Assembly: GCA_002224055.1 (NCBI GenBank)
Contig: AZLU01000012.1
Span: 186,001-250,000 of the forward strand
Length of the DNA stretch: 64,000 bases
DNA from: Pezizomycotina sp. ARF18
Lineage: Eukaryota; Ascomycota
Direction: 5' to 3'
Each line of letters starts with the position of its first letter. Positions within the stretch are counted from its first letter, which is position 1. Shown one piece after another: positions 6,942-54,015 of this stretch. The notes below the pieces were generated by a model. That model worked only from the letters and a program-made list of their open reading frames with translations, had not been told where the DNA came from and did not search any database. The position numbers and the translations under genes are program-made.

Positions 6942-8000
6942 TCACGCCTCAATAATCCTCATACCTGACATGTCTGCTGCTCGGCTATACGAGCGCTGGT
7001 CCGACTCCCAAGTCTCTCCAGATGAAGACATGGATTCGTCCTCAGCATGATAATGAGCCCTTCTATCCTTATTGTTTGGGTGTCGCAGTAGATCTCTATG
7101 AGCATGCGGAGGGAATTCCTCTCGATACCCGGATCTTTCTCTGCTCGGCACAGGCAGATTAGGGTTCGGCACCCTGGGGATCGCACCTCACCTGAGGGTC
7201 ATATATTCTCCTACCTCTAGGGGAAGGAGGGCGTGGCAGGTCTCTCGGAGTATGAGTTCTTGGAGAAGTAGGTCGTGGAAGATCTCTCGGAGTATGAGTT
7301 CGTCTTGGTGAGGGAGATACTCTCCGGGTAGGAGATCGGGACCGTGCCCCGACTCGGACGCGTGGTACAGGGGACGGGGAGCTTACCCCGACCTTGGCTC
7401 CTGTCGAAGAGGGCCGACTAGAGTCCCGGGGCTGACTAGACTCCCGCTGCCGCGGCCGTGCTCTGCCCAATGGACGTCTCAAGAACTGACTGAATATTGT
7501 CTGCTTGCCGCTAGCCGCTGGTCTTGCACCTCTCATCATAGGCCGCCGTGAGCCGCTTGTCGCCTCTCTAGGATGACTTGTCGATCGTCTTCCAGCTACA
7601 GGACTTGTAGGTCTGCTGCGATTTAATGGCCGTCTCGCGCCATGCTCCGATTGCCAAGGAACGCTTTCAGGTCGTAAAGGTTGCCAAGAAGCCCATTGAC
7701 CCCAGTAGGCCGATTGCCGATCCGCTTCAGACTCGTAGTGCCGCTCTGAATCCATGGCGCCTCCGAAGCCCCGCGACCGGGATCTCGACCGGCTCCGCGT
7801 TCGCCTCGAGTTGGTAACGCTATAGACGGAGGCACGGTCGTCATGATACTCTCAGTATCAGTCGACCGCCTGCTATGTGTTTCGTTGTAGCGGGCCCAAT
7901 CCGGCAGTTCACGACTCCCCAGGAAATCATCTACCCAGGGCCTCGTGTTACGGTGGCTTTGATGATGGCTATGGTGGCTCGCATGGTGGGTGGCGTCCAT
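6942..8000 (-). CDS. His-rich to Arg/Ser/Pro-rich disordered protein
   Basis: I do not recognise this gene. The N-terminus is His-rich (MDATHHASHHSHHQSHRN), with an in-frame stop just upstream supporting the ATG at 8000. The rest is strongly basic and low in complexity, rich in Arg, Ser and Pro. It contains a duplicated 14-residue unit around RTHTPRDLPRP encoded by a 42-bp direct repeat (7242-7301). The C-terminal part reads PNPNLPVPSRERSGYREEFP and ends in SGMRIIEA. Coding signal moves between two minus-strand frames near 7750 and again near 7165, which suggests single-base changes or sequence error. The composition recalls RS-type RNA-binding tails or structural disordered proteins. Its His-rich character is shared with the Ser/His/Gly-rich gene at 12.9-15.5 kb. 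Confidence 0.5.
7242..7301 (-). repeat. 42-bp direct repeat in the Arg/Ser/Pro-rich gene
   Basis: The 18-bp core CTCTCGGAGTATGAGTTC appears at 7242-7259 and 7284-7301, exactly 42 bp apart, with similar flanks. The period is a multiple of three and encodes 14 residues, so it expands the protein without shifting frame. Confidence 0.8.
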
Positions 8001-9266: not shown

Positions 9267-9407
9267 TCAGAGTTCGTGTCCGGGTACTGAACATTTAGCG
9301 CAATAGCAAGACTTTTCGTAGATTTTAGTCTCGCCACATCTACAGCCTTTGTAGTCGAATATTCGTGATATATGTGAGCAAAGGTATATCCACTGTAGGT
9401 CGCACAT
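9267..9407 (-). CDS. MC-family small cysteine-rich protein, short
   Basis: The 46-residue product is the leftmost member of the MC family. It starts MCDLQWIYLC and has the first knot GCRC at residues 21-24 and the second knot CYCAKC at 34-39. The family's charged helix and closing proline tail are missing, so this is a truncated copy or it continues after an undetected frame change. There is no signal peptide. The seven cysteines in two knots suggest metal binding, which is inference. The nearest relatives by start are the copies at 11.6 kb and 12.9 kb, which also have a Cys near residue 10. Confidence 0.55.
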   Translation of the reverse strand: MCDLQWIYLCSHISRIFDYKGCRCGETKIYEKSCYCAKCSVPGHEL

Positions 9408-12893: not shown

Positions 12894-15537
12894 ATGTGTC
12901 GCCAAGCGATCAAGTACAAATGCTGCAACCAACTAGGCTATTCCACTTGCCAGAATCACAGTGTAATAATCCTCGCAGGGGTACACAGCAATGTAAAAAA
13001 GTTATTTCCAAAGATGATCCCATCCGCAAGAGTACTGCGAGAGCTGTTACAAATACGTCCAGGAACAAACAAAGGATAAGCTCAAGGCGGAAAAGGAGCA
13101 ATATAAACTGAAAATGCAGTTCTTGAAGGAAAACAATCCCAAGAACGCGATGAAGTCGCCGGGCTTCCTAGACAAATTGAAAGGTGTAACTTCTCCAAAA
13201 TCATCCAGCTTAAAGCCTGATATGAAGGACCTTGGTGGGCCGGCACCACCGAGATTTCTTGGAACGGAGAATCAGATAATGAGAGATGAGGAAAAGAGGC
13301 AGAGAAAGGAACACCGGCATAATGAAAAGAAGAAGAAATCGAGTGCTCATAGTCATCGCAGTGACCGTGTCCTTCCGCAAGCCATGAAGCCTCTAAGGGA
13401 AGAAGCCAATTTGAAGAACAAGCGCCACTACCCCCACCTGACGGTCAGTACGTTGAACAGGATGGCATAAGGATTCTCCCGGATCGGGGCCGCGAGGTCA
13501 GACAACACGACTTCGTCGGAACAACGGGGCTCAAGCCGGTTCTTTCAACTCGGGCAATGCCGGAAGCGGGTCTGGCAGTAAAACCACCAGGCCTGAATCA
13601 ACGCATGAAAGTGAACACGGTAACGGCTCCCAAACATATTTGTACTCCCGCCAGCCACTTCCCATAATTATTCCAAATATCGCGATCTAGATCACAAGCT
13701 AGCTCTCGTCATGGTACGCAAAGCTTCAATGCGACGCGCAAGCTCCCGTGGCGATGCGCAAAGCTCTCAACATGGTGCGCAAAGCTCTCGATCTGCGTCA
13801 CGAACTGGTTCACATCGGAGTTCGGAACATCCTACGTCTCAATATGAGTACGGATCGCATCATGGTTCACAATTCATGTTTCAACCAGAAGCCATTCTGG
13901 TTCTCACCGTTCCTGTCACCGCGTGGATCAGGAACACGCGGCGGTCCAAGTCGCGCCGAATCTAGGCCGGCAAGTCTTTCTCACCAAAATGCTGCGCCAG
14001 GATCCAGCTCCGAAACTGCACCTGCAACTTATCAGAGTAGATCTGGAAGAGGGTCTTCGCATGGTGTTTCTGATTCTCAGTGCCCAGTTCCTTCCGGAAA
14101 TGAGCACCATCAAAGCCCCAAGGGCCCTGAATCTCGGCAACAGGCTACCGCAGGATCATATACGTCGTCGTCGTACGCAGGTGAGCCGTACATCGGACCA
14201 GACGTAGACTCATGGTTGACTAATCAGACTAAAGTACGTTACCCTATAGGCACTCCCTCAGAGCTTTCGTTTGCTACGAGTGGCCAAGAGTTCTCTACAT
14301 TAGAGTATGAAAGCAGAGGGGAAGTCACGAGCCCACAGCAGACTATCGCGAAAAGGGATCCGCAAGAGGTTCCTCTCTTGCTGGATCCGTTCCTCCTCCA
14401 GAGAGACCTAGGGACGGAACTCCTGATCGCCATAGTTCATCGAGAACCTCCCATGGCAGTGGATCCGTCTCGCGATCCAATTTACCGGAAACTACGTCGT
14501 CACGCCCGCTCCGACCGTGACGTCTACGAAATCTGGATCTACGTCAAATATGCCGAGACCGCCAGAGGTATGAGCCGTCAAGGATCCGTTAGAAGTTCGA
14601 AGCATTCCGCCGCACCGACGGACATTCAGGGAGCCATCATTCTGCTGGGACGTCGAAGCACTCAGGAAGTCACCATTCTTCAGGAACGTCGAAACACGCG
14701 GGAAGCCGCCACTCCGTATCCGCGTCGAAACATTCGGGAAGCCATCACTCGGGATCTGTGTCAAGACATTCAGGGAGCCATCATTCATTATCCGGGTCGA
14801 AACATTCGGGAAGCCGTCATTCGGAAGCCATCATTCAGGATCTACGGCGCGGCCTACCTCCAGAGCTACGACATCTACTCATGGCCCTTCGACGCCGAGC
14901 ACGAGCTCAAGACACCATGGGACCGAGTCACGCGATGGCCGTAGTACTAGAGAGTCTGATAAGCCTCAGGCCATTCACATCATGCTCTACAGGTTCGCGA
15001 TCACACATATCACGGTCCGGTGACTCATCGAAAATACCTAGAACTAGTTCGGGTCAGCCCGAGCATAATATTTCCGTGAGCTTCCGGCCCACGCTCCCAC
15101 TTCATCACGGATCTAGTGCCGGGTCAAGAACGAGCTCCAGAGCAGCTCCGTCTGGAACTTCGTCTCAAGTCTCCAGGTCACGCTCGAGGCGTCATGATGA
15201 CCGAAGCTTTTCAAGTGGACATTCTCGCGGTAGCGGTAGCGGGTCTGTGAATTCGTCGTTTCATTACCTCTAGTTAGCGAAGCTGGCTCCTCGCTTTCTG
15301 GAAGATTCGGTGCAGTTTCCAGCTCGTACCCTGCTATGACAGACGGAACTGGCGGTGAGTCTTACTATGGATCTTTCCATGACGCCGGTGGACCTCATGG
15401 TTCCCGGGACACAGAGACCACAATATACGGGTTCCAGTCGGGAATCGTCCTCGAGGAGCGGCTCCACTCGAGGACCGCCTAGCAAGTCTTCGAAAAATGG
15501 TTCTGATCATTCGTCTCACCACAGGCCACGGCGGTAA
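12894..15537 (+). CDS. MC-type head fused to long Ser/His/Gly-rich disordered tail
   Basis: The N-terminus is MC-like (MCRQAIKYKCCNQLGYSTC), followed by a second knot YCESCYKYVQEQTKDKLKAE in another frame. A Lys/Glu-rich, coiled-coil-like helix runs through about 13470 (QFLKENNPKNAMKSPGFLDKL, then RKEHRHNEKKKKSS). The remaining 2 kb encodes low-complexity Ser, His, Gly and Arg sequence (GSFNSGNAGSGSGSKT, GSHRSSEHPTSQYEYGSHHG, SSRESSSRSGSTRG), including a 36-bp tandem repeat at 14617-14832. The frame shifts many times along the tail, as shown by the Ser/His-rich reading moving from frame to frame. It could be one gene of about 880 residues, or several. Metal or RNA binding are possible guesses; I recognise no domain. 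No signal peptide is seen. Confidence 0.5.
13711..13800 (+). repeat. Imperfect 21-bp tandem repeat
   Basis: About four units share a CGCAAAGCTC-like core spaced roughly 21 bp apart, inside the low-complexity part of the MC-type gene. The period keeps the reading frame. Confidence 0.55.
14617..14832 (+). repeat. 36-bp tandem repeat, six units, encoding SKHSGSHHS units
   Basis: Units begin at 14617, 14653, 14689, 14725, 14761 and 14797, exactly 36 bp apart and imperfectly conserved. In the Ser/His frame each unit gives a 12-residue block of the form SKHSGSHHS plus three variable residues, for example SKHSGSHHSSGT and SKHAGSRHSVSA. The variation is mostly synonymous or conservative, so the amino-acid pattern appears to be selected. 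Three or four His per unit makes metal binding conceivable. Confidence 0.85.
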
Positions 15538-16294: not shown

Positions 16295-16738
16295 TCAGCT
16301 TAGTACAATTTCTTTTAGCAAGCCATTGGCTGTATTGGTCCGTGCATCCTCATCCTGGCTATCGAGTGGCACTACTGGAGGTGGATCCCCGGCGGGGCGC
16401 TTTCTCTCCCTCGGTTTAATTGTCGAGTCTTTGATGTCGCGGATTGAACGTTCGCATCGTTTCTCAATTTTTTCAACCTTCTTATCTTCATCGTCGTTTC
16501 GTTGTTGACTTCGTTTGCAAAGTTGGTGATTTCTCCGCAAGATTCGCAACCTTCTGCGCAAACGATATAGACCCAACCTGGCTTTTCATTATCGGAGAAC
16601 ATTCTGCCACCGGGGACCACGCTGTGATAGATTTTTGGCAGGCGCAGCCGTTTGTGGGTGTTCGACGTGCTTCATCACCCGATGACAATCTGCGCGGTTG
16701 TCTCGGCAGAAGATATAGACGGGCACTGTATAACACAT
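16295..16738 (-). CDS. MC-family protein, frame-disrupted, long charged tail
   Basis: The start reads MCYTVPVYIFC. In a second frame comes the first knot NGCACQKS, and in a third frame the second knot VCAEGCESCGEITNFANEV. A charged helix and a basic Pro-rich tail follow (IKPRERKRPAGDPPPVV), ending LLKEIVLS. All family parts are present in the expected order across about 440 bp, but the frame changes at least twice. This looks like one gene with small indels and not three fragments. Confidence 0.55.
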
Positions 16739-17523: not shown

Positions 17524-17996
17524 TTAGCAAAAGCGGAGAGACCGGTTTATGGTGAGATTTGTAGAATGGCATGTCGCTTTAATCCTTAATATTTCTGAGG
17601 GACTTCTGGCGGACTTGCGCCCGGCGATTACGGGCAGACGCGTAGGGCGGAAGCTCAAGCCCCCTGTATCGTGGCGCTTGAATTTCGGCGGAATGTCGAT
17701 CGTACGCATTGTTTCAAGTGGTAAAGAGTCTTCTTTTAAAAGCTCATGAACTAGCTTGAGATTTCCATCCCGATAGCCCAATTCAACTCGCGGATGTGTT
17801 CATTGACGACTACGCAGCCATGGCATAAACATTCGACGTACCCCGACAAGGGGTTTTTGACATCTTGATGACCTACGTTCAGGGCATTGTAACTCAACCT
17901 GTTGCAGGGACAACCGTCTTTCTGTCGCACAATATGCTTAATCGGCTTTTGGCTCAGGTCAGGGCAATAGAAATATAGAATCGTATGCGTGCACAT
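17524..17996 (-). CDS. MC-family protein
   Basis: The first 81 residues form one open frame: MCTHTILYFYC start, first knot DGCPCNRLSYN, second knot ECLCHGC, then the helix VVVNEHIRELN. Near 17760 the frame changes and continues as GNLKLVHELLKEDSLPLETM, then IDIPPKFKRHDTGG, which matches the closing part of the family. The gene is in tandem with the copies at 16.7 and 19.2 kb, all on the minus strand with starts 1.2-1.3 kb apart. No signal peptide is present. Confidence 0.65.
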
Positions 17997-18878: not shown

Positions 18879-19208
18879 CTACCAGATTCCGCCAAAGTCC
18901 CCGCAGTCGGTTGTGTCGTACATGCCCACACGCTCCAGGTTTCGCAAAGGCCCGCAGAACTGCTCCAATAGTACCCAGGACTCCGTTGGCGCCGGCAGAT
19001 GCGAATTGAACGAACGGTTAAATTTGCGGATCGCGAAGGAGATTTGCCGACAGAGCTCGCAGTTGTTGGCGCAGGCATGGATATCCGCTCTGATGAATGT
19101 ATTCTGCGTACATGGACACCGTCCGAAGGATCCCGTTACCCGAATTTTCGCTGTCGGTCGACCGAATACGTTAGGGTGCTCAAAGATTACGACGCAAAGT
19201 TCGCACAT
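18879..19208 (-). CDS. MC-family protein, intact
   Basis: This single 109-residue frame has all family parts: MCELCVVIFEHPN start, first knot GRCPCTQNTF (about residues 29-38), second knot ACANNCELC (about 45-53), and a charged helix AIRKFNRSFN. The C-terminus is longer than usual and lacks a clear G-x-IP tail. The opposite strand is also open here, but only the minus strand carries the family pattern. A TATAAAA on the same strand lies 196 bp upstream. Confidence 0.7.
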   Translation of the reverse strand: MCELCVVIFEHPNVFGRPTAKIRVTGSFGRCPCTQNTFIRADIHACANNCELCRQISFAIRKFNRSFNSHLPAPTESWVLLEQFCGPLRNLERVGMYDTTDCGDFGGIW

Positions 19209-22922: not shown

Positions 22923-23181
22923 TCATAGTATCAATTGAGGAGATATAAGTCTCGAAGTGGGGTCCTTATAACACCACAGACTGATGCAAGGACAATCTCT
23001 GAAGTAGACGCGGAGACCATCTCTGGGCAGTTGCATGGCTTCCCGTCGTTGAGGGTGTAGTAGGGAAGGTCGTGTGCATAGTCGGCTGTAATTTCCGTAC
23101 ATGATGGGGCCGAACGTTGTCATCAGGCTTGCGAATGGGATGGCGGGCGCCAATCATGTAGATGTTCGTTTGTCGGCACAT
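22923..23181 (-). CDS. MC-family protein, frame-disrupted
   Basis: The start is MCRQTNIYMIGARHP. In another frame comes the first knot GKPCNCPEMV, and in a third the second knot YFRDCPCISLWCYKD. The order and spacing fit the family, but two frame changes interrupt it and no closing tail is evident. It lies 790 bp downstream of the start of the intact copy at 23.97 kb, on the same strand. Confidence 0.5.
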
Positions 23182-23710: not shown

Positions 23711-23971
23711 TCAGCCTGGTAACGCCGCGAGCCACAAGTTGTCGCCTGACATGTTGTTGAGCTGCTCTACGAAATCTGATAACTCTGCGCAAGGCGCGCA
23801 GTTGGGCTTCTGACACTTATACATGTGGAGGCGATCTATTATATATTCTTGGCAGTCACAGTCGTCGATGAAACCCTGGTCTATCTTGCCGACGTAACCA
23901 GGCCTGACTCCAGATCCGTCGGTGTCAGACTGAAAGCCTCCGTACAGAAATAGGTCTGTCTGTTGACACAT
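23711..23971 (-). CDS. MC-family protein, intact
   Basis: An 86-residue open frame: MCQQTDLFLYGGFQSDTDG start, first knot DDCDCQEYIID (near residue 37), second knot KCQKPNCAPC (near 53-62), then the helix AELSDFVEQLNNMSGDN. The middle loop between the start and the first knot is longer than usual. There is no signal peptide or membrane segment. The basic IP tail is not obvious and may lie in another frame downstream. Confidence 0.65.
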   Translation of the reverse strand: MCQQTDLFLYGGFQSDTDGSGVRPGYVGKIDQGFIDDCDCQEYIIDRLHMYKCQKPNCAPCAELSDFVEQLNNMSGDNLWLAALPG

Positions 23972-25184: not shown

Positions 25185-25381
25185 TTAACCTATATATCTC
25201 CTGCAAGTTATTACTCTTCGCCTCTGCTCTCCACGCCAACAGTTCGGGCAAAATCTATTCAGACATGATATGTATGTCCATACTTGTATGTGACTGTAAC
25301 AGGTACAGCCTTTGTAGCTTGATCTTGCTCGACAGTGTCCTCGCCCCTGGAGTAGGAAGTGTGAAAAGTAACCCAACACAT
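25185..25381 (-). CDS. MC-family protein, frame-disrupted
   Basis: The start MCWVTFHTSYSRGEDTV changes frame into YKGCTCYSHIQVW (first knot) and SCLNRFCPNCWRGEQRRR (second knot and helix start), ending CRRYIG. Only one frame change is needed, and there is no intron-sized gap. The C-terminal IP tail is absent. This is the rightmost member of the minus-strand block; the next genes, from 26.8 kb, run the other way. Confidence 0.55.
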
Positions 25382-26232: not shown

Positions 26233-26334
26233 ATGTGTCAGGCATACATCAACACGCGATCTCATGAATTTGTTATCTGTATAGTTGTCGTGATTGGAAT
26301 TGTTTTACGAATTGTTTTAAGAAAACTATCGTAA
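26233..26334 (+). pseudogene. Truncated MC-family start
   Basis: A 33-residue frame begins MCQAYINTRSHEF and then turns hydrophobic (CIVVVIGIVLRIVL) without either cysteine knot. A TATA box sits at the family's usual distance upstream, so this looks like a promoter and N-terminus whose knot-coding part has been lost. A small independent hydrophobic peptide is the alternative. Confidence 0.35.
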
Positions 26335-26842: not shown

Positions 26843-27105
26843 ATGTGCAGAGTCACTCTCTTATACAGCAATCATCACAACGGGAAATCAGAACAAAGAA
26901 GAAGGGAGCACCAAAACTGCAACTGCGTTTTAATGCTGATGAAGTGGAAGCGTACTGCCTGTGAGTGGGAGAATTGCTGGTGGTGCCGTTTACGCGAAAG
27001 AAAGGCGAGAGATAGGAAGTAAAGGAAATGAGGATGTGGCAAACGCTGGGTAAAATCCCATCAGCATTATTGCCAATGAACCGAATCACCCCTTCGGCGG
27101 TATAA
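26843..27105 (+). CDS. MC-family protein, array member 1
   Basis: The first open frame gives 59 residues to 27022: MCRVTLLYSNHHNGKSEQ start, first knot NCNCVLMLM, second knot ACEWENCWWC, then the basic helix RLRERKARDRK. The closing tail GKIPSALLPMNRI follows in the next frame and stops at 27105, so a single small indel probably separates helix and tail. This is the first gene of the regular plus-strand array. Its TATA box is 149 bp upstream. The first knot has Asn in place of the usual Gly. Confidence 0.6.
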
Positions 27106-27695
27106 AGATGGAATTATAATACTAAATGATAGTAGTTTAATGGAAACTGGGATGGAAGTGTTTAATATTCAACAACCGGAAGGTATTTTGCGTCAACAGC
27201 GATTTAGTTAATAATTCACTCCTGCAAAACTTTTCGTATTTGGAAGTAAAAGGGTCGCTCCGGAAATTCAAAACACAAAGGCTATCAGGAATTTCATTCA
27301 CAGATTTAATGGTCGACAGACTTTCTTTGTTCTAAATCGTATATCTGAACCAAAAATCTCAGGCTATAGGTTCAGAATTTCGAGCCTGGCGTTTGTCTTC
27401 TATAGTTAAATATCCATATGAAGATCGGGCGGGTAGACGAATTTGAAGGTTGAAATTAATTAAGGCTGAGTTAAGATTCTAAGCTTGAACGACTCAGCAA
27501 TATTTGAATAATATCAATTATAAGTATACCTTGGGTATTTAATCTTACATATACTACGTGGATTTTTCTATCTCTAATCAGAAAATCCGGTACCTCCAAA
27601 GCCGTCCTCCTAAAAGCGATATTAATCACTGCCAGACCAATCATAAATCGATCAATTCAACATCACGATCATTCTAAATAATCACACCCTGCAAG

Positions 27696-28010
27696 ATGTG
27701 CAAGGTCCAGATGTTCCACCTATATCATGACCGGCGACCGACGGATGAGCAAGGTTACTGGCTCGAAAGTTTCGGTGGATGTTCATGTCCAGAAAAATTC
27801 GCAAGATTCAACTATCATTTTTGCAGCTTTCAATGCGCCTGGTGCTGGGCGAAGTCCAACGGAGTATTTGACTTAAACCAGGGGGAATGGATAAGAATTA
27901 GAAGCGAAGGAAGGGCCATCCCAGCGGCTCTACACGATTTTCGCTACGAGATCCCGGCGATTCAGATTCCGATTGATGTGGTCTCACTACTGGAATTTGC
28001 CTTGATGTAA
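27696..28010 (+). CDS. MC-family protein, array member 2, intact
   Basis: A single 104-residue frame with every family part: MCKVQMFHLYHDRRPTDE start, first knot GGCSCPEKFARFNYHF (residues about 27-31 for GGCSC), second knot CSFQCAWC (about 43-50), a helix NQGEWIRIRSE, and the closing tail GRAIPAALHDF. An extra hydrophobic stretch, VSLLEFALM, ends the protein. This is a good reference copy for the family. No signal peptide is present. Confidence 0.75.
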   Translation: MCKVQMFHLYHDRRPTDEQGYWLESFGGCSCPEKFARFNYHFCSFQCAWCWAKSNGVFDLNQGEWIRIRSEGRAIPAALHDFRYEIPAIQIPIDVVSLLEFALM

Positions 28011-28231
28011 TACAAGTAGCTTATCGAGAACGAATATAAAAGATTTTTTTTGTATTAGTACATTCGCAGAACAGTTAGACCTCTCAGAATAACCTGGATT
28101 TTCTGTTATTCAGATCCTGAAAAATCTGTAATCTGTATTAATAGATTGCAGCGAGGGGCATCTGTGGTTTTGGTCGTGAAATGTGATCTTTCTCATGAGC
28201 TTTTAATTCTTATGAATTGGGAAGCTGACAC

Positions 28232-28288
28232 CCAGTACACAGAAACGTTGCCAGTATACAGAAATGTTGCCAGTATACAGAAATATTG
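28232..28288 (+). repeat. 19-bp tandem repeat, three units
   Basis: Units at 28232, 28251 and 28270 share CCAGTATACAGAAATGTTG with one or two changes each. It lies between array members 2 and 3 and is non-coding as far as I can see. Confidence 0.85.
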
Positions 28289-28740
28289 AAAAATCTATAC
28301 CTGAAGCAAAGCTAATTGACCGCTTTTGCTGCATAAAATATAACAAATATTCCTTTATAGTTATCGACACTGAGCATCTTTTTCAATTTGAAAAATCCTC
28401 CTCAAATTTGCGTTTCAAAGATAGAGGTTGTGATTCGTGACGAAATGAATTTATCAGAACTCGATATTTCGACACCGAGTGGACCTTTTGAGATTCAGAA
28501 TGAATCGGTGCAATATTTTGGAACCAAAGCACAAAAATTGATTCGTCGCAAATTTATCAGCTATTAGGCGCCGCCGGCTCATAAAAAAAGCTTGATAACC
28601 CTCCGTCAACCTATTGAAGTTCCGTAAACAAACCTCGATCGTCCATTCCATTCTTTCGATATCTAGGATCAGCTTGGTATTGCACTCAATATACACTTTA
28701 CAACGACTCTGCCATAACTTCGCGTTTTATATACAACAGG

Positions 28741-28999
28741 ATGTGCCAGGTCTTTATTGATCATCTTTTCCACGACAACAATTATGATAGCGAGAATAGA
28801 CAGGACGACGAAATTAGAATTACCTTGGATGCGTATGCAGCGAATCGTACCTCATATACGTTTGCGACGTTGCTCAGAAGTCTTGAACTGAACAGAATGC
28901 CCGTATCTTCTCACCAGAACGCGTAGGAACAATGAGGAGCAGTATCGAGTTTTCGCTGAGAGCGGAAGAACAGTCCCGAAGCCATTAAAACAATTTTAA
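28741..28999 (+). CDS. MC-family protein, array member 3, frame-disrupted
   Basis: The start MCQVFIDHLFHDNNYDSE is followed in a second frame by the first knot GCVCSESYLIYVC, and in a third by the helix and tail TRTRRNNEEQYRVFAESG and RTVPKPLKQF, which stop at 28999. The tail is a close match to the family consensus. At least two frame changes are needed. The first open frame alone ends at 28926 and would be a misleading annotation. Confidence 0.5.
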
Positions 29000-29580
29000 A
29001 CCTAAGGCAATGAATGGAATTAGGCATTAACAACATAGGTATCATGCTGGTGGAGGCTCTTGAGATTGCGATGGGATATTGCATGAATTATAAAACATAA
29101 AAATCAGTATTCTTGAAGATGGGTTTCAATATAGTAGAGACGTAAATTGAATGATCATGGTAAAAGTGTTCTATCCCGATTTGGTGTACGTGGAGCTGGA
29201 TTAATTCCCATACTTCGAAAATAACTAAACTCAGTAACCCTATTGAAAGTACGCTAACTCCCGATTAAAGCTACTACCACCCACTAGAATGGTTGGGAAG
29301 CGAAATATAATCTCATGCAGATGTCATGTTCGGGCATCTACCTACTAAAAATTCAATCAAGCTTTTCTGTTTTACGCCATTTCTGGGTCGTATACTCCGA
29401 GAGGTATCCGGATTTCGCTAAGATCTGAGGCAAGTCTTTGATCTAATCTGAATGCAGATTCAATAGTTTGTAGATAATTATAATAAGAGATCCAATGAAC
29501 CGAATATAATACGGATAAATACAAGACCCTTTTATTAACTTAAACTTGTCCTAGGCCCGATAATTCCGTTCAACTCTCCA
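29000..29580. other. Array spacer
   Basis: This spacer between array members 3 and 4 is AT-rich. No gene is seen. Confidence 0.5.
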
Positions 29581-29620
29581 TTATTTAAAGACCGTCAATA
29601 CCCAACTAGTCAAATTCATC

Positions 29621-29705
29621 TCTCATTCTACTACCTTAAAAAAATCCTTTCTCATTCTACTGCCTTCAAAATTCCTCTCTCATTCCACTATCTTACAAAT
29701 TTCTC
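29621..29705 (+). repeat. Pyrimidine-rich leader repeat upstream of MC gene
   Basis: The core TCTCATTC[TC]AC occurs at 29621, 29650 and 29678, giving three units of 28-29 bp within a CT-rich leader that ends at the ATG at 29750. CT-rich tracts mark start regions of many fungal genes; the duplication here is local. Confidence 0.65.
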
Positions 29706-29749
29706 AATCTCAACACTGCCAACCACCTACAATCTACTAAACCGAAACA

Positions 29750-30004
29750 ATGTGCCAAATGAAATTATACGATAGCCGCTGTAATATGCCCGCTAAAGAC
29801 CTTCGCAAAATGAAGGAAAACTACGAGAATTGCCCGTGCCCGAATGAGTTCAGTTATTTCGAATACACGAAGTGCGGAGATCCAGGTTGCAAGAAATGTC
29901 GCATCATGGCCAAAATGACTCTCACAAACAACCAATATGAGTACCAAGAACTGAAGAAGAAAGGGAGGCCAATACCGGAACTACTGCGCCGTTTCGCTTC
30001 GTAG
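29750..30004 (+). CDS. MC-family protein, array member 4, intact
   Basis: The 84-residue product is the most compact complete member. It has the MCQMKLYDSRCNMPAKD start, first knot NCPCPNEFSYFEY (residues 28-30), second knot KCGDPGCKKC (41-50), a helix RIMAKMTLTNNQYEYQ, and the tail KGRPIPELLRRFAS. It is Lys-rich and soluble, without signal peptide or membrane segment. The three-cysteine second knot with C-x4-C-x2-C spacing resembles a small zinc knot; metal binding is inferred only. A CT-rich repeated leader precedes it. Confidence 0.75.
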   Translation: MCQMKLYDSRCNMPAKDLRKMKENYENCPCPNEFSYFEYTKCGDPGCKKCRIMAKMTLTNNQYEYQELKKKGRPIPELLRRFAS

Positions 30005-30859
30005 GCTGCATTACTGCTATCTCAAAAAGGGGAGGGAACTAAGAGGGGTTTATCAGGGTATAAAACAAGGGGGGTGTTGGAGCATCGTGGAGAGGGATCG
30101 ATCATTGTCTTGATTGATGGATAAGGATGGGAGGAAAGCTCCCCTATTTATGTACAATAAGGCATATACATGATCTATGGTAATGGTGTTCCTACAGTAG
30201 GCTGGTTCCTAAACTTCGGAATGCTGAAGTTTAATATTTATGCACTGGTTTTTGTTCGAGCGGTTTGTTCTTTGTACTAGAACTTCTTGCCATCTGCTTT
30301 CAATTACTTAGAGAATAAGAATTAAACTGTCCTTTGAAATTGACCATGAGCCGCGTTGAGCCGTTCATTAGTAGCATTGATACTTTTCATGTCCTTTACA
30401 ATGTCAATTTGTATTGTGCTTCCTCCCAGCACCCCAATCCAGTTGATTTGTGAGCCCTTCAAAATACGCACAATTTTTGATGTGAAGTGGTTTTGGTAGG
30501 CAGCAATTCTGGTATTAGTCAGGGATTTGCGTTTCCGATGATGATTTAAAACTTAAAGTATATGAAAAGATGCCATTCCGACGAGGTCGAAGAGCTGTGA
30601 TGATTCGTCAACCACAACCTCAGCGTTAAAAAGGTTGAGAACATAACCTTGATGAAAATCCTAAACTCGCATACAGATTAAACCTATTAATAGCAATACT
30701 CTACAGAAAACTTCTACATAAATTGGCCCTGCCTGGCCCCAACTTTTCAGTGACAGTTTCACCAAATTTTCCGTAAAAATTCGGAGGTATGCACAGGCAG
30801 TTGAATGAGAGCCGTACCTAACCTAACTTCGTAGCGAAAGCCACGAATCAAACGACAAA
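30005..30859. other. Array spacer
   Basis: This spacer between array members 4 and 5 is AT-rich. No gene is seen. Confidence 0.5.
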
Positions 30860-31088
30860 ATGTGCCAAGTCTCCCACCTTATCACAGACCACTACGACAG
30901 CAACCCCGTCGTTTAGATCTTCGCGATTATCATGGCTGTAACTGCAGCAAGTCTACGGAATCGCCGTGTACTTCATATGCTCTATCGACTGTGAAAAATG
31001 CCAGGAGGGTGCTCAGCTGGCCCGTGAGCGTAACGAAGCTGTATGGAGGACGTTTCATGAAGAAGGTGGAGGCATTCCGAAGGATTGA
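30860..31088 (+). CDS. MC-family protein, array member 5, frame-disrupted
   Basis: The start MCQVSHLITDHYDSNPVV runs to a stop. The first knot YHGCNCSKSTES is in a second frame. The second knot and tail are in a third: FICSIDCEKCQEGAQLARER, then NEAVWRTFHEEGGGIPKD, ending at 31088. The helix motif ARERNEA matches members 8 and 9 closely. Two small frame changes explain the layout. Confidence 0.55.
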
Positions 31089-31920
31089 GAGAGTTCACTC
31101 CTAAGGCAACGAACGGGAACCATTAGATAGATATTTCATCACCGGTAGTGAGGCGGGTGACACACACCACTCATTAGCATATCTCTTAGCACAGTTTGGT
31201 AGGTGGGCGAGAGAGTGGACGAAACTAGCTTGTTTCGATTGTAAACTCTAATACAAAATCTTCTACGCGCATATGTCGGCTTTATTCGTGCTAGCTTCAT
31301 GGGCACCTTAAACATTCAATGATATTTTCTTTCTTTTTTTGTGATCTGAAATTTAGGATGGCGCTTAGTTTCTAAGCGCAACATCGACGTAGTTGCACGC
31401 ACCGCGTCTACAGTAGAACGAAAATTCGGAGGGTTGAACATTCAGACTAATTGAGGTAAAATCTGTGCCACAAAGGCATAATTCATGAAGCTGTTATAAT
31501 ACCTTATTTAAAAGGGTTTCATGATTAATCAATAGATTTCTGTTCAAGTATGCATATTTATTGCAAACTGGACTATTATGTTCCAGAGAAGTACAATGAA
31601 AATAATAAAGAAGCGAGAAAAAGAACAGTAAAACAAATAGGTTACAGGGCTTATTTAGACATCGAAGACGGGTAGCCTATGACCGAAGGATAACCCGGAG
31701 ATTCCACTTCTCACAACTTGTAATTCAAGCTTCATACGAAAACGTAGAATTCAGCGGCATCTGGTACTTGCATCAATGATCATAACCTCGTGTTAGGACG
31801 ACTCATCGATGTTCAACCTTCAGTATCTTGACATAGCTCTGGCCGGGTAAGTCTTGTATCGCCTTGGGATCGAACTTTAGACATGTTCTGGAAAAAAATT
31901 ACATTCAGAAGATCGTAGGG
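31089..31920. other. Array spacer
   Basis: A 41-residue plus-strand frame near 31550 (MHIYCKLDYYVPEKYNENN start) is charged and could be a degenerate family start, but it lacks both knots. Otherwise nothing is seen. Confidence 0.4.
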
Positions 31921-31927
31921 TATAAAT
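31921..31927 (+). promoter_or_regulatory. TATA box of array member 6
   Basis: TATAAAT within GGGTATAAATATGG, 177 bp upstream of the ATG at 32098. A near-identical GGGTATAAG context occurs before member 7. Confidence 0.6.
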
Positions 31928-32097
31928 ATGGAGCTAAAAGCCGCCCACCTCCCTTCCTCTGAGTAAGAAAACGTATACCACGCCTATAATTATATATAGC
32001 CACCACATACGATCTAAGACAGACAAGAGAAAGGTTTATCATACCACCATCTACTGCACTACTACAGACATCTAAATCTCCTCGGACAGAATCAAAG

Positions 32098-32427
32098 ATG
32101 TGTCAAGTTACACTAGAAAATAGCGACTGCGAAGGTGGCAATAAACACGAGTGGCCGGAAATCGAACGTCAGAATTACCTGGGCTGCCCCTGCATCGCTA
32201 AATATACCCTGAAATTTCATGAACCTTGTGACACTTACATGAGGGTGGGCGCTGCCCGGGGTGCTCTACCGTCGTGCCGATGGTATGGAATTGAACAAAT
32301 TCGAGGCACAGATGGTCGAATTGGAAGGCAAAGAGGTACCAAAACCACTGCAGAAGTATTTGAAAAAGGAGTAATCTGCAACGTAGCCATTGCCACAACC
32401 AAGGTGGAGCAGAAGGTTAAATACTGA
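32098..32427 (+). CDS. MC-family protein, array member 6, frame-disrupted
   Basis: The open frame starts MCQVTLENSDCEGGNKHE and includes the first knot GCPCIAKYTLKFHEPC (residues about 30-45). After CDTY the family reading leaves this frame: the second knot appears as GGRCPGC, and the helix and tail appear in a third frame as DGMELNKFEAQMVELEG and KEVPKPLQKYLKKE, stopping at 32374. The remainder of the first frame to 32427 is therefore probably spurious. The TATA box is 177 bp upstream. Confidence 0.6.
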   Translation: MCQVTLENSDCEGGNKHEWPEIERQNYLGCPCIAKYTLKFHEPCDTYMRVGAARGALPSCRWYGIEQIRGTDGRIGRQRGTKTTAEVFEKGVICNVAIATTKVEQKVKY

Positions 32428-33042
32428 AAATAGTTCATTGTCATGAAGATGTAAAGCTTTGTGCAATATCATATTACATTTTCTTGCATGTATGATTCTT
32501 AAAGTAATAGATAAATTGATCTTTTCATAATGGATTGTTCATTTTTCTTTTTTACATTAAGACCTTTCTCTTCAGCATCTCTCTGATCGAGTCCCTGATA
32601 TAGTGATTTTTGTAATTATTTCCAGACACCAAAGTACTCTTTTGCGTCTTCCAGGTGTGAATTCATTAAAACTGAGCTTCTAGCCCTTCCTCCGTTATGC
32701 CAAAGTAAGAATCTCAAGAATAGTATAACTGCGCTAAAGGAAACTAATCAAAGGAGAGAAGAGTTCGTGTGACGTCTCAACGATGTAGTTGATTTGTGAA
32801 TTAGAATTAGTGGGTCTAAAGCCCATTTAGAGCATTTACGTAGAGTATTCATGAATTCAAAGTTGAGGTGGACGTCGCGCTTGAGACGAAAACTTAACTT
32901 GCAGATGGGCTGTGCTTAATATCCTCATGTTTGTGCTAACAGATAGGTGAAGTTTGAGGCCAAAGCAATGTTAGGTGATAAACCATAGCATAAGTTTAGA
33001 CGTACGAAGAATGTGTTATAATTTTATCCAAAGATAGCAGGG
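32428..33042. other. Array spacer
   Basis: This AT-rich spacer lies between members 6 and 7. No gene is seen. Confidence 0.5.
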
Positions 33043-33048
33043 TATAAG
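33043..33048 (+). promoter_or_regulatory. TATA box of array member 7
   Basis: TATAAG within AGGGTATAAGTAGG, 165 bp upstream of the ATG at 33208, in the same context as the box before member 6. Confidence 0.55.
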
Positions 33049-33207
33049 TAGGAACCCAAAAGGCAGCATCAGTATCCCTCGAATACTCAACAACCACCTC
33101 CTCTCCAACTAAGTATTATTTCGAGTCTTTCATAATCTAAGAAAACGCAATACCCTACTAAGAATCCTCCAGAATCTCTTTATCTTCCAGCTTGAAACAT
33201 ATCAAAC

Positions 33208-33581
33208 ATGTGCCAAGTTTGGTTATACAGAGGCGCATGCCCAACGGTTTCGGGTCGGTAATCTGGCCGCCCCCGGTGCGGGAACTCAACTATTTAGGCT
33301 GCCCATGCGCCGCCGATTACAGCTACCACCATTACACACGATGTGGTAACCCTGATTGTGAATGGTGCAAGCATAATTGGCCGGTTCATCGGGAGCTGAA
33401 TCGCTGGACTGCGCGGTACTTCAAGCGCATGGTCAAGATGTTCCGGGTTGCTGAGATATTGGCTCCCAAAGCGGTCAAAAAGGAAGGCGAGTGCATCACC
33501 GAAGCGCCCACCGAAGAGGACCCGAGCGGCTCGCCTCCGCCGCCTAAGCGAGGGGGAAGACGGCCAAAGACCCTAGAGTAG
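33208..33581 (+). CDS. MC-family protein, array member 7, Pro/Lys-rich C-terminus
   Basis: The start MCQVWLYRGACPTVSGR reaches a stop, and the rest lies in the next frame: NYLGCPCAADYSYHHY (first knot), RCGNPDCEWCKHNWPVHREL (second knot and helix), then AEILAPKAVKK. An extended tail, APTEEDPSGSPPPPKRGG followed by RRPKTLE, is unlike other members and resembles a nuclear or nucleic-acid-binding tail. The apparent upstream start at 33192 in the knot frame is unlikely because it lacks the MC start. One frame change is needed. Confidence 0.6.
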
Positions 33582-34467
33582 CTGAGAGCTAAAATGACTT
33601 GAAGCCCAGGATACGACCGGGATTTTCCTTTCTTTTTTATAGTGCTTTATCACTGTCCCCAAGCGTGCTGGTTTTAATTTTCAGCAGAGTTAATGCAATT
33701 TAAATTTGCCATTTTTTCTTTTATAAATCTTCGGAAACTCTATAAGCAAATTAGGTTATGAAAAAGAATGAATGAGCGCGGAGCTGTTATACTAGAGAAA
33801 TAGAAGACAGACAGGCAAGATGCGGTCCGGAGGGTTACTTTTGAGGTACAAAAAGAAATCTTGAAAAACTTCATATGATGAATGGATAGTGCGCGTATGT
33901 CACTGGCTGATTATCGATGGAAGCATCTTTGGGACATAGAAGACACTTAATAGAGATTATATAGGAATGTTCAGAAGTTTTGAGACAATGAACAATGAGT
34001 TCATTATCATTTAACGATAATATTGAGCCAAGTAACGAATAGTTCCTCAAATAAACACCAATTTCGAGCTTAAATTCTTTGGGAGGTTTCAATATGAAGG
34101 GGATGAAGTTAGAAATGCTCCCGGTTTCATACTGTGATAACGCATCTTGTATTAGTTCAATAGTGCTCTCCAAAACTCAACTAGCTGGCAAGGGGGTTCG
34201 AGTTTTCTGATCAATTTTGTCCCAGACTTTTCGAAAAAAAAAAAAAAAAAAAAGGCGTCTGCATCAAACCCAAATGAATTTTCTCCGTAATACATCTCAA
34301 AATCCATTAAAGCACTACTAATTCTATTGCCCATTGAAATCCTAGATATAGGATAAAAATTTCCTTAAAAATAAGAAGAAAAAGAATAAAACTAAAATAA
34401 ATAAACGTAAACAAGAAATAAGAAACAAGAAAACTATTTATTCTCCGAAAAAAAAAATCCGAAAGAC
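33582..34467. other. Array spacer with poly-A tract
   Basis: This spacer between members 7 and 8 has a run of about 20 A at 34222-34241. A 100-residue minus-strand frame at 33871-34173 has no recognised motif and is not called. Confidence 0.45.
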
Positions 34468-34770
34468 ATGTGTAAGGTTAGTCCCTACCTCGAGGATCAC
34501 TGGGCAACCCAGGAGGAAGCCGACGCCATGAAGAAAAAGATCAAGAACGATACCGGCGGGTGCAAATGTAAACAGGAAGTCACCATATATGTCTTCATAC
34601 CTTGCGAGCAATACTGCGATAATTGCCGTCGAGAACTTAGGTCGGCTCACGAGAGAAATGAAGCTGCCTACACAAGTTTTAAGTCGAGAATATTCCCTGG
34701 GAAGCGAGAGGGCTGGGTCCCGGTCGCTCTTTCGAGCTTCAAGCCTTCTACAAAGACCAAGGCGAGGTGA
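34468..34770 (+). CDS. MC-family protein, array member 8, intact
   Basis: A single 100-residue frame: MCKVSPYLEDHWATQEEAD start, a Lys-rich helix, first knot GGCKCKQEVTIYVF (residues about 31-35), second knot CEQYCDNC (about 46-53), the helix RRELRSAHERNEAAY, and the tail EGWVPVALSSF. The second knot and helix are very close to member 9 (YCESC, then RERNEKAY), suggesting recent duplication of the two. No signal peptide is present. Confidence 0.75.
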   Translation: MCKVSPYLEDHWATQEEADAMKKKIKNDTGGCKCKQEVTIYVFIPCEQYCDNCRRELRSAHERNEAAYTSFKSRIFPGKREGWVPVALSSFKPSTKTKAR

Positions 34771-34920
34771 CTGGAAAATAGTCGTCAATTGCAAATTGTG
34801 GTGGTCTAGAAATGATTCCAGTGGGAGGTCATTTATTGCGATACTTTTTTCCAAGGGTCTCTCGGGCGTCAAAGGGTATATCTCCTCCGACAACCGTACG
34901 AAGGCGGAACATTACTATCT

Positions 34921-35012
34921 TCCGTATACGGGCCGAGACTTTTAACACAGAACGTCAAAGAAAGCTAAGACGAAGGGGGGAGATACCTATCGCACTTGAA
35001 GAATTCGCCTGA
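34921..35012 (+). pseudogene. Tail-only MC-family remnant
   Basis: The frame ends ERQRKLRRRGEIPIALEEFA, a good match to the family's closing GxIPxxL tail, but no MC start or cysteine knot is found just upstream. It lies directly behind member 8, so it may be the leftover of a partial duplication. Confidence 0.35.
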
Positions 35013-35500
35013 TGACAGCTGTACATCGAGTTTGTCCTTACCGGATACGTGAAAACGTATTCCAGCCTTTTGCGAAGGCTTTAAGCAAAGGGTCTCACGC
35101 GCTTATTCTTTTCATCGTGATTGATAAAAGCTTTGTCAAAGAATGTTAAAGATAGAACTGGTTATTTAGTTAGTAAATAGAGCCGACTTTTGATACCCGG
35201 ACCTATGGATTGTAATAGGATCACAATCCGTAAGGATTGTATTGGAGATCCCTATCCACATCTTACAACCTCAGATAGATACCAGAATATTAACACAAAG
35301 CTCAGTCGCCTCTTGCAAGAAGGTTGATACATGGAGAGGCGGAGACTATTTAACTGCCTCCGTGATCCCTCGACTCCCAGTTCTAGTATTATTGCATTCC
35401 CACCTTTCCGCATCGCAAAGGCCCGATCACATATCCTTCCGTTTTCCTACATATTTTACAACGTCCACTGAATGTCTACGTGTATCGACATCTAGAAGAC

Positions 35501-35806
35501 ATGTGCATACTCATGATCGATATCGAGGACCACGCGGACTCCCGAGAGGCTCGCGATGAGGCATTAAACAAAATCCTACAATACGACGAATGCGAACGCC
35601 AATGCCAAGAGGTAGTGAAGGTCTTTACAGTGGCGCCTTGCAAAGATTATTGCGAGAGCTGCATTGATATGATTAAGGAAACGCGCGAACGGAATGAAAA
35701 GGCATACATTGAGTACTACAGGAATAATGACGGTTGGGTTCCGAGTGTCCTACGCAAGTGCAGGCCGGGGTTAAGAAGCTCAGGTGTCCAGATAGTCGAA
35801 TATTAA
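35501..35806 (+). CDS. MC-family protein, array member 9, intact
   Basis: I choose the second Met at 35501 because it gives the family start MCILMIDIEDHADSREARDE. The first knot is altered to ECERQCQEVV, the second knot is PCKDYCESC, the helix is KETRERNEKAYIEYY, and the tail is DGWVPSVLRK. The upstream Met at 35480 would add seven residues (MYRHLED). This is the last gene of the array. It lacks the Gly of the first knot and has an expanded Cys spacing there. Confidence 0.7.
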   Translation: MCILMIDIEDHADSREARDEALNKILQYDECERQCQEVVKVFTVAPCKDYCESCIDMIKETRERNEKAYIEYYRNNDGWVPSVLRKCRPGLRSSGVQIVEY

Positions 35807-46086: not shown

Positions 46087-46430
46087 CTAGTGTTTAGTCT
46101 TTGTTTGTTGCTTTGAAGACAACGACGCGGACAACAGGCATCTCGGGCTTCCGTAACAACAACGAAGAAGACCCACATCCCTCTCCTCCCCTCTCCAACT
46201 CTCCAACGCGCATTGGGCGCCGCCAGAGATCGGCTCGTCCGGAATGATTCCGGCTCGCAAAACACTTGCAGTCTGCGTCGCGACCGCAATCTCGCTCGGA
46301 CTTCTCGTTGCCGGTGTCCAGGGCTGCAGAGCATGAGTTCGCCCTTGACCGGGCATTCGAACGGGTGCCCGCGTCGGGCCTAATTTCGCGAGGTTCACGG
46401 TGGCGCTGAAGGGACATCCCTTGCTGGATG
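46087..46430 (-). CDS. Possible small protein sharing the VKGEL-LCSP module
   Basis: The minus strand contains CPVKGELMLCSPGH, the same module as CSVKGELTLCSPEQ in the gene at 48.3-48.9 kb. The shared 30-bp DNA (46321-46350) is 29/30 identical to 48880-48909. Beyond the module, the frame with EIAVATQTASVLRAGIIPDE looks most protein-like. The gene limits are uncertain. Confidence 0.35.
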
Positions 46431-48279: not shown

Positions 48280-48941
48280 CTAGAACCCTTTTGGTAAGAA
48301 CGAGATGTGTTGGCGAAGGAGCAATGCCACCAGGGGAGATTCGCGCCACCAGTAGTTCCAGCATTTTGGTGATGACCCGGACCTTCGGGAAGAACTGAGG
48401 ACCCTTTGGAGATGGTGTGCATGTATTCGGGTTCCGGTGAGTTATGTTTATCGAAGGCGTCGATACCCTTCGCCGTCAACAATTGAAAAGGCGCCGGACG
48501 TCATCTCAACCATACTTTTGGCTCCCGGGTCATACTGTTTCAGTCTCCTTTGAAGCTCATCATCTCTGAACCTCGCAGTGAACCATCCCGGTGAGCCTGC
48601 GGGACTTTGGTGGGCTGTGGAAGGGATTTGGCTCGTATTTCCTTAATGGACTATTCTCTACAGCGAACGTATGTCCAGAATAACGGCGAGAGCCACCATT
48701 GCCGGGGCCCGCGGTCAAGAAAGCAATGGAAGTGTGACCTTTCTCAGAGTTATCCTGGTACGTCTTGAGCGCAGTGTAGAAGTACTCCTTGAAAAAAGTC
48801 GCCAGCTGGGTGCACATAATTTCCACATCTCTGAAGTGTAGAAATCAAGTCGCGAAAGTAGTAGGCGACATACTGCTCGGGGCTGCAGAGCGTGAGTTCG
48901 CCCTTGACCGAGCATTTGCACTCTGGCAATCTGTGTGACAT
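48280..48941 (-). CDS. Cys-start protein with CKCSVKGEL module, unknown
   Basis: The start is MSHRLPECKCSVKGELTLCS followed by PEQYVAYYFRDL. The next part reads ATFFKEYFYTALKTYQDNSE and GGSRRYSGHTFAVENSPLRK, then DELQRRLKQYDPGAKSMVEM, and near the end PKCWNYWWRESPLV before a stop at 48280. The order is coherent across three frames. The CWNYW element shares 17 bp of DNA with the neighbouring gene (47924-47940). No domain is recognised; the first 30 residues hold a compact cysteine cluster. Confidence 0.4.
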
Positions 48942-52819: not shown

Positions 52820-54015
52820 GATACTATCGTTTTCCTAAGAGAGCGTTGTTTATCGTTGATCGGGTGGTGGCCGAAACAAAGTTGGGAATACATCATAGCC
52901 TAAGTGGTATATCATGCTCTTGGTCATCAGCGAAGACGTGTTTTGTCTCATTATGTTTCGTTTTCACTCAATGTTTCCGAAGCCGTTCCATTTCACGAAA
53001 CCATCGTCCGTAAACACGCACCGAAAACTTCATTTTTTTTTTTTTATTGTTGGAGGGAGAAAAGTATGATAGATGCCTTGAAAACAGTATGAAACGTATT
53101 TAGTCTTCCATTCGAATCCTCCTGCGCCGTTTATCTTTACAGGAAAATAGCGGAAACAATATACAGGCATAGAGAAATTTTCGCCTTAGTCGGCGAATGA
53201 AATAATAGTCAATGCGCCAACTGTATGGCTTTAGGTTCACCCATCTCGAATCTTCACGGAAGACTTCGCCTCATGCTACCGAGGGGTGTCTACACTAAGG
53301 ATTATATCACTCAGCGGCTTGTAGACCCTGTGTTCCGGTCTCTAACTCGTGCTCATAGAAATACCGAATCTTTTCCTCGTTATAGCATCTGACTTAGAAG
53401 ATCTTGTTGACTACCCAACCACACGTTGAAATCCTGGAGACTTCCCGTTTCCGCGTCTTGCACCTCCAGGTTCATCAGGGAATGAGCAAAACAAAGTGCT
53501 TCACAGTTACCCAGATAGCGGGATTTTTTTCCGTTAATAGTGTTCAATCCCTGCATTGCAAAAAGCGGGGTAGTTCAGGCCGAGATTTAAACAAGTATAC
53601 ATGCAAATTCGTAACTTCAGAAACACAGAAGTTGTCTATAGCTTCCGAGTACTTGTGAAATTATCGCAAATTCTCTACGGGCGGGGAAGTCGAACATTTG
53701 CTGCTGAAAACCCTAGCGTCTTCAAGATAAGGATTCCGTGGCGTGCTCAGTCTTATTGCCGTAGTCTACCCCGCTTTTTAACAAGACGAATAGCATAAAA
53801 GGCTGCCATATGCTCGAGCCTTTCGTCTTTCCTGCCTTTAAATATCTCTTTACGACAAGATCGTGAGCGGATATTGTTGGCGTTGAGGTTTGTTCACAAA
53901 AATAAGGTTAGTGTTACACAAACGAAAGCGAAGCTAAACGAGAGCGCTAATCTTGTTCTGTGTTAGCGGACTACGGCGGACTTGTCTCCGGCGCAATCAA
54001 AATTTAACAAGCGAG
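52820..54015. other. Spacer upstream of the FAD oxidoreductase
   Basis: No supported gene. It includes a T run at 53032-53045 and a TTTAAATA motif near 53836, about 180 bp before the oxidoreductase start. Confidence 0.45.

What the first reader, a model, noticed from the sequence alone, without database searches (positions are those of the whole stretch)
26843..35806. Tandem array of nine small two-knot cysteine proteins at about 1.1-kb spacing
Starts at 26843, 27696, 28741, 29750, 30860, 32098, 33208, 34468 and 35501 are all on the plus strand, with gaps of 0.85-1.26 kb. Each starts Met-Cys-[QKRI] and shows, in order, a [GNE]-C-x-C knot (widened in the last member), a C...C-x-x-C knot, an R-E-x-N-type charged helix and a G-x-[IV]-P-x-x-L end (the last two weaker in member 7). 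None has a signal peptide. Regular spacing with strong divergence of everything except the knots suggests old tandem duplication under diversifying selection. I recall similar MC-start proteins as unnamed in fungal genomes; a dense array like this may be an undescribed local system, for example in metal handling, stress or self/non-self functions (speculative).
Basis: partly seen in the sequence, partly recalled or inferred. Interest (0 to 1): 0.85.

Follow-up and report, generated by a model that had tools for sequence, protein, structure and literature searches.

The report
Divergent array of small zinc-binding-like proteins
This stretch of probably fungal DNA holds a family of very different small proteins that share a set of metal-binding-type residues and lie in two gene rows pointing away from each other; what they do in the cell is unknown.

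Summary
All nine plus-strand starts exist at 0.85-1.26 kb spacing. Leave-one-out profiles recover the four intact members at E 4e-7 to 1e-9.

(1) Codon 11 is Cys or His in 9 of 9 members, against 75 of 1281 other open ATGs: the Cys/His exchange expected of a metal ligand. (2) There is a second arm: seven more MC..CxC..CxxC sites at 9.4-25.4 kb, all minus strand, so the arms point away from 25.4-26.2 kb (14 in the window; 100 shuffles: mean 0.21, maximum 2).

Five of nine members are frame-broken, yet eight of nine keep CxC and C..CxxC when frame is ignored: recent decay or assembly errors. Diversifying selection is untestable; synonymous sites are saturated. No relative was found in Pfam, PDB, Foldseek libraries, viral or prokaryotic contigs; no fungal collection was on hand.

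Best reading: an unnamed family of intracellular, zinc-stapled miniproteins with variable helical surfaces, spread by tandem duplication. The zinc is inferred; a role in recognition or conflict is a guess.

The parts
26843..27022 (+). member 1, 59 aa ORF with C2, H11, CxC, C..CxxC; tail motif in another frame at 27049 (frame-broken)
27696..28010 (+). member 2, intact 104 aa, H11
28741..28996 (+). member 3, frame-broken; H11, CxC, no last CxxC found; tail at 28964 in another frame
29750..30004 (+). member 4, intact 84 aa, C11; second structure model
30860..31088 (+). member 5, frame-broken, pieces in three frames, H11
32098..32427 (+). member 6, frame-broken although a 109 aa ORF runs from its ATG; C11; tail at 32327 in another frame; profile score within the range of shuffles
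33208..33581 (+). member 7, frame change shortly after the start, then a long open stretch; C11; no tail motif
34468..34770 (+). member 8, intact 100 aa, H11; first structure model
35501..35806 (+). member 9, intact 101 aa, H11, widened first knot
34938..35012 (+). leftover tail piece of a further copy
   Evidence: (4.2 bits, not significant alone)
26233..26334 (+). possible relic start: Met-Cys with H11, no CxC
25188..25381 (-). left-arm relative, start and knots in different frames; no C/H at 10-12
23711..23971 (-). left-arm relative, intact 86 aa; no C/H at 10-12
22934..23181 (-). weak left-arm candidate, Met-Cys and CxC in different frames; fails the composite test
18879..19208 (-). left-arm relative, intact 109 aa, H11
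17751..17996 (-). left-arm relative, intact 81 aa, C11; leave-one-out E 0.31 (not significant), composite positive
16375..16738 (-). left-arm relative, frame-broken, C11
11358..11644 (-). left-arm relative, frame-broken, C10 and H12; 8.5 bits only
9267..9407 (-). left-arm relative, 46 aa ORF, C10 and H12; not found by the profiles, composite only

Best explanation
The locus encodes a divergent family of 80-110 aa intracellular proteins whose fold is stapled by metal, most likely zinc. Ligand-type positions are Cys2 (the first residue once Met is removed), Cys/His11, a Cys-x-Cys knuckle, and C..C-x-x-C at the start of a long helix. In the models a strand follows Cys2 and a second strand lies between CxC and C..CxxC. 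If these strands are antiparallel, Cys2 would complete a four-Cys site with C..CxxC, and residue 11 would join CxC in a second, three-ligand site. The variable middle, the long helix and the G-x-[IV]-P-x-x-L tail would be the binding surface, so that paralogues bind different partners. The genes arose by tandem duplication in two arms that diverge from 25.4-26.2 kb, with copies gained and lost. Shown: the family, the ligand pattern, the two arms. Inferred: zinc, the pairing of ligands, intracellular location, partner binding. Speculative: use in biotic conflict or self/non-self recognition.
For: Leave-one-out recovery of the four intact right-arm members (E 4e-7 to 1e-9) and of 19208 and 23971 (3e-6, 9e-5). 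C/H at codon 11 in 9/9, background 75/1281; the column was not used in picking members, though the members are related and so not independent. 14 composite sites, seven minus then seven plus, none elsewhere in the window; 100 shuffles mean 0.21, maximum 2. Two AF2 models of members 22% identical give the same order strand-helix-strand-long helix with the CxxC at the helix start. Tail 7/9 against 41/5061. Purine at -3 in 9/9; A in 7/9 against 86/294, and in 6/8 left-arm starts against 106/289; loose TATA-like box 140-180 bp upstream 6/9 against 35/294 (interval chosen after looking). pN below pS in all six intact pairs.
Against: AF2 confidence is moderate (pLDDT 74.1 and 70.2, pTM 0.63 and 0.58) and residues 1-30 of the second model, which hold Cys2 and position 11, are below 50. 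No coordinates, so ligand clustering was not measured. Seven conserved ligand positions leave one site with three. Left-arm 23181, 23971 and 25381 have no C/H at 10-12; 17996 fails leave-one-out (0.31); 0 of 8 left-arm genes have the tail. Strict TATA box is 2/9 against 20/294, not notable. Foldseek, PDB and Pfam give no zinc fold. Five of nine copies are frame-broken. No expression data, no relatives outside the window.
Confidence: 0.5

Rival explanations
1. Decaying relics: the array is mostly non-functional remains of an old duplicated gene, and only a few copies, or none, are still used.
For: Five of nine right-arm copies and several left-arm ones are frame-broken; leftover pieces at 26233 and 34938; another gene in the window, FAD-oxidase-like, also looks broken.
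Against: Eight of nine keep CxC and C..CxxC when frame is ignored and seven keep the tail; four intact right-arm ORFs with pN below pS; the frame changes could be assembly errors.
Confidence: 0.2
2. Metal buffering: the proteins are metallothionein-like scavengers of metal, and copy number sets capacity.
For: CxC motifs and tandem copies.
Against: Only 6-7 Cys in 84-104 aa; ordered helices predicted; strong divergence between the knots is not needed for buffering.
Confidence: 0.06
3. N-degron regulation: Met-Cys is conserved because removal of Met exposes a Cys whose oxidation marks the protein for degradation, as in plant ERF-VII factors.
For: Met-Cys in 9/9; the plant and animal pathway as told in passages of PMC12994171 and PMC11773813.
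Against: A passage of PMC11773813 says that the plant oxidases need an unstructured N-terminus, whereas a strand is predicted from residue 3 or 4 (low confidence in the second); a passage of PMC12994171 says fungi sense oxygen indirectly; C/H11 and the knots suggest that Cys2 is a metal ligand.
Confidence: 0.06
4. Effector-like proteins that leave the cell by an unconventional route and act on another organism.
For: Small, Cys-bearing, fast-diverging, clustered in a stretch with almost no recognisable gene.
Against: No signal peptide by eye; metal-type C/H exchange points to a reducing compartment; lifestyle of the organism unknown.
Confidence: 0.08

Closest known systems
Unnamed Met-Cys-start small Cys proteins of filamentous fungi
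   Same: Met-Cys start, a Tyr-x-Cys-x-His-like segment in left-arm 9407 and 11644, later CxC and CxxC
   Different: Could not be compared: no fungal collection. Right-arm members have a single C/H at 11 and a G-x-[IV]-P-x-x-L tail.
Treble-clef and zinc-ribbon zinc fingers
   Same: Paired Cys ligands, the last pair at the start of a helix
   Different: Cys2 and C/H11 in place of a first CxxC knuckle; no Foldseek match; best Pfam match Pcf11_C on 27696, E 0.0036, 17.6 bits against a cut-off of 26.7
Zn2Cys6 (Gal4-type) fungal DNA-binding domain
   Same: Six or seven Cys in a small domain
   Different: CxC-x(11-14)-C-x(3-4)-C-x2-C plus Cys2 is not the recalled C-x2-C-x6-C spacing, and Pfam gave no match
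Fungal metallothioneins
   Same: CxC motifs, tandem copies
   Different: Few Cys (6-7 in 84-104 aa) and predicted helices

Membership tests
Treble-clef / zinc-ribbon zinc finger | two pairs of Cys/His ligands around one metal | tested here: inconclusive
   Ligand-type pattern present; geometry not measurable without coordinates
Treble-clef / zinc-ribbon zinc finger | fold similarity to solved members | tested here: not met
   Foldseek against the PDB, best E 2.3 for each of two moderate-confidence models
Zn2Cys6 (Gal4-type) | C-x2-C-x6-C spacing (recalled) and Pfam match | tested here: not met
   Spacing differs; no Pfam match in 12 family ORFs or pieces
Metallothionein | very high Cys content in a short chain without helices | tested here: not met
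   6-7 Cys in 84-104 aa; helices in both models
Unnamed fungal Met-Cys proteins | significant similarity to fungal database members | not testable with these tools
   No fungal collection; viral and prokaryotic contig scans confirmed none
Cys N-degron substrate | Met-Cys start with a flexible, accessible N-terminus | tested here: inconclusive
   Met-Cys 9/9; strand predicted from residue 3 or 4, residues 1-30 of the second model below pLDDT 50

The most novel reading that the evidence does not exclude
A two-arm divergent array of N-terminal-Cys, zinc-stapled miniproteins serves one fungus as a repertoire of paralogous recognition modules (self/non-self, or against viruses or competitors). A fixed metal core carries a freely changing surface, and because Cys2 becomes an N-terminal ligand after Met removal, folding or turnover could be gated by thiol oxidation.
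Probability: 0.1. Interest if true: 0.8.

Novelty: new variant of a known kind. Interest (0 to 1): 0.5.

Why it matters
Small MC-start cysteine proteins are, as recalled, common unnamed entries of fungal genomes, and the members scanned here match no Pfam family above its cut-off. A ligand set that includes Cys2 and an exchangeable Cys/His11 gives such proteins a testable definition, and a dense two-arm array gives a place to study gain and loss of copies. If they prove to be recognition modules, the locus would be an undescribed fungal system; if they are plain zinc miniproteins, a family still gains a definition.

Tried and rejected
Relatives elsewhere: alignment A1 was too diverse to scan with. 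Single proteins: 34468 and 29750 in viral contigs (2 and 6 pattern matches) and 34468 in genome contigs (46), none confirmed. The closer alignment A4: 77 matches in viral and 28 in genome contigs, none confirmed. PDB profile: one match, SDF-1 at E 0.8, taken as chance. Foldseek: best E 2.3 (PDB, both models) and 0.86 (viral library, first model only).

Pfam: 50 entries, 49 distinct ORFs or pieces (8, 46 and 47 at E 0.01, 7 and 18 at E 1). The only match below 0.001 is FAD_binding_4 on 54192-54560 (9e-5, 22.6 bits against a cut-off of 26.4). Pcf11_C on 27696 is at 0.0036, below its cut-off. Of the family, eight right-arm and four left-arm ORFs or pieces were scanned; 28741, 16738, 11644, 9407 and 23181 were not. 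About half of the 75 stop-free stretches of 110 aa or more were scanned, so Pfam-recognisable genes in introns-rich pieces may have been missed.

Introns as the cause of the frame changes: judged by eye only, for 28741 and 30860, where the pieces in different frames nearly touch; rejected there, not settled for 23181 or 12894. RIP: TpA/ApT 0.71-0.89 over the window, no sign of it. dN/dS: saturated. Papers: seven searches for the family and one for N-degrons listed nothing that describes it by title or start of abstract; only PMC12994171 and PMC11773813 were opened, and only passages of them were seen.

Changed: count of family members scanned by Pfam, the R-E-x-N count, the strict tail count, the strict TATA result and the weak first FAD match.
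Full report
CHECK. The nine starts lie on the + strand at the given coordinates and spacing. Intact ORFs with the whole pattern are 27696 (104 aa), 29750 (84), 34468 (100) and 35501 (101). 26843, 28741, 30860, 32098 and 33208 are split by frame changes. A profile of the four intact ORFs, run against 2702 stop-free stretches of the six-frame translation, recovered pieces of 30860 (25.3 bits), 33208 (22.9), 26843 (18.5) and 28741 (11.6); 32098 scored 7.5, within the range of shuffles. The best score in 20 dinucleotide shuffles was 10.0. Leave-one-out profiles from seven ORFs gave E 4.1e-7 (27696), 1e-9 (29750), 1.4e-9 (34468), 1.8e-8 (35501), 3.1e-6 (19208), 8.6e-5 (23971) and 0.31 (17996, not significant). 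Part of these scores comes from the Met-Cys and knot motifs by which members were picked; position 11, the tail and the minus-strand hits were not used in picking the nine.

A HIDDEN POSITION. Aligned from the start codon without gaps, column 11 of the nine reads H H H C H C C H H. Apart from column 2, no other of the first 15 columns has C or H in more than two members. Of 1281 other ATGs whose first 11 codons are open, 75 have C or H at codon 11. The members are related, so the nine are not independent trials. Left-arm 19208 (H), 17996 (C) and 16738 (C) share it; 9407 and 11644 have C10 and H12; 23181, 23971 and 25381 have none at 10-12. Cys/His exchange at a fixed place is what a zinc site allows (general knowledge of zinc proteins) and is the best sign that the knots bind metal rather than form disulfides.

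A SECOND ARM. The profile of the four + strand ORFs also hit minus-strand stretches 25382-25188 (18.5 bits), 19229-18882 (16.8), 16671-16375 (16.5) and 24001-23714 (12.5), all above every shuffle. A separate DNA-level composite (ATG-Cys, then CxC, then CxxC at set distances, any frame) occurs 14 times: 9407, 11644, 16738, 17996, 19208, 23971 and 25381 on the minus strand; 26843, 27696, 29750, 30860, 32098, 33208 and 34468 on the plus strand; none elsewhere in the window. 100 shuffles gave a mean of 0.21 and a maximum of 2. The composite misses 28741 (no last CxxC) and 35501 (widened knot). So the left genes run left, the right genes run right, from a centre at 25.4-26.2 kb. A weak + strand candidate at 12894 (C10, C11) breaks the rule inside the left arm. 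Neighbouring tandem copies tend to share a strand, so the strand split is one or two events, not fourteen. The widened tail motif is in 7 of 9 right-arm genes against 41 of 5061 random positions and in 0 of 8 left-arm genes; the arms are therefore distinct subfamilies. In 24-38 kb the + strand holds three further tail sites: 34977, read as a leftover copy, and 36725 and 36828, which belong to no known member. A further Met-Cys start with H11 is at 26233.

ARE THEY GENES? The -3 base is a purine in 9 of 9 (A in 7 of 9 against 86 of 294 other ATGs; left arm 6 of 8 against 106 of 289). A loose TATA-like box lies 140-180 bp upstream in 6 of 9 against 35 of 294, an interval chosen after looking; with the strict box it is 2 of 9 against 20 of 294, not notable. 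In the six intact pairs pS is 0.75-0.91 and pN 0.43-0.53: old, constrained, and too saturated for any claim of diversifying selection.

BROKEN COPIES. Eight of nine keep CxC and C..CxxC when frame is ignored (no shuffled control for this count) and seven keep the tail. A FAD-oxidase-like gene at 53938-55563 also looks broken: two stretches in different frames match overlapping parts of FAD_binding_4, the first only weakly (E 0.071), the second at 9e-5, which seems to leave no room for an intron. Breaks are thus probably not special to the array. Recent decay and assembly errors both fit and cannot be told apart here. No RIP signature.

STRUCTURE. AF2 on 34468 (12 rows): pLDDT 74.1, pTM 0.63, strands 3-10 and 37-44, helices 15-27 and 51-75. 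On 29750 (11 rows): 70.2 and 0.58, same order; block means of 77-92 from residue 31 on, 37-44 before. The tools gave no coordinates, so Cys distances were not measured and the pairing proposed here (Cys2 with C..CxxC; residue 11 with CxC) is inference. Foldseek found nothing convincing.

WHAT IT IS. No Pfam family reaches its cut-off for the eight right-arm and four left-arm ORFs or pieces scanned. Viral and prokaryotic contig scans confirmed no relative. Fungal origin is inferred from the look of the sequence; one search says only that no genome is held for the window. I favour metal-stapled intracellular interaction proteins spread by tandem duplication, at 0.5 overall. Zinc, ligand pairing, location and partner binding are inferred; recognition or conflict is a guess from divergence and copy turnover.

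NOVELTY. Fast-evolving tandem families of small zinc-binding proteins are a known kind of thing (general knowledge). This ligand pattern with Cys2 and Cys/His11 and the divergent layout did not appear in the listings of seven text searches, in a library that leaves out most subscription papers; this is weak evidence of absence.

Noticed in passing
12894-13467 +: Another Met-Cys start (C10, C11), with Y-C-x-x-C and a Lys/Glu-rich stretch in another frame at 13018-13467: perhaps a longer relative on the opposite strand to the rest of the left arm.
   Followed up: partly
13703-15270 +: Ser/His/Gly-rich ORFs with 36-bp repeats (14652-14824 and neighbours) that seem to switch frames; no Pfam match.
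   Followed up: partly
53938-55563 +: FAD-binding oxidase-like gene that looks broken; the only conserved gene hinted at by Pfam in 49 ORFs or pieces.
   Followed up: partly
51790, 52755, 56807 (-): Three minus-strand Met-Cys starts followed by H-P-[LI] and Glu/Arg-rich stretches without knots: perhaps a second, unrelated MC-start family.
   Followed up: no
46321-46362 and 48880-48921: 42-nt direct repeat, 90% identical.
   Followed up: no
7216-7299: Two tandem 42-nt copies inside an Arg/Ser/Pro-rich ORF (7162-7851, minus).
   Followed up: no
36725 and 36828 +: Two tail-motif-like sites beyond the last member, attached to no recognised copy.
   Followed up: no
1-64000: No Rfam match, no tRNA and only short repeats, and almost no Pfam-recognisable gene among the ORFs scanned.
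   Followed up: partly
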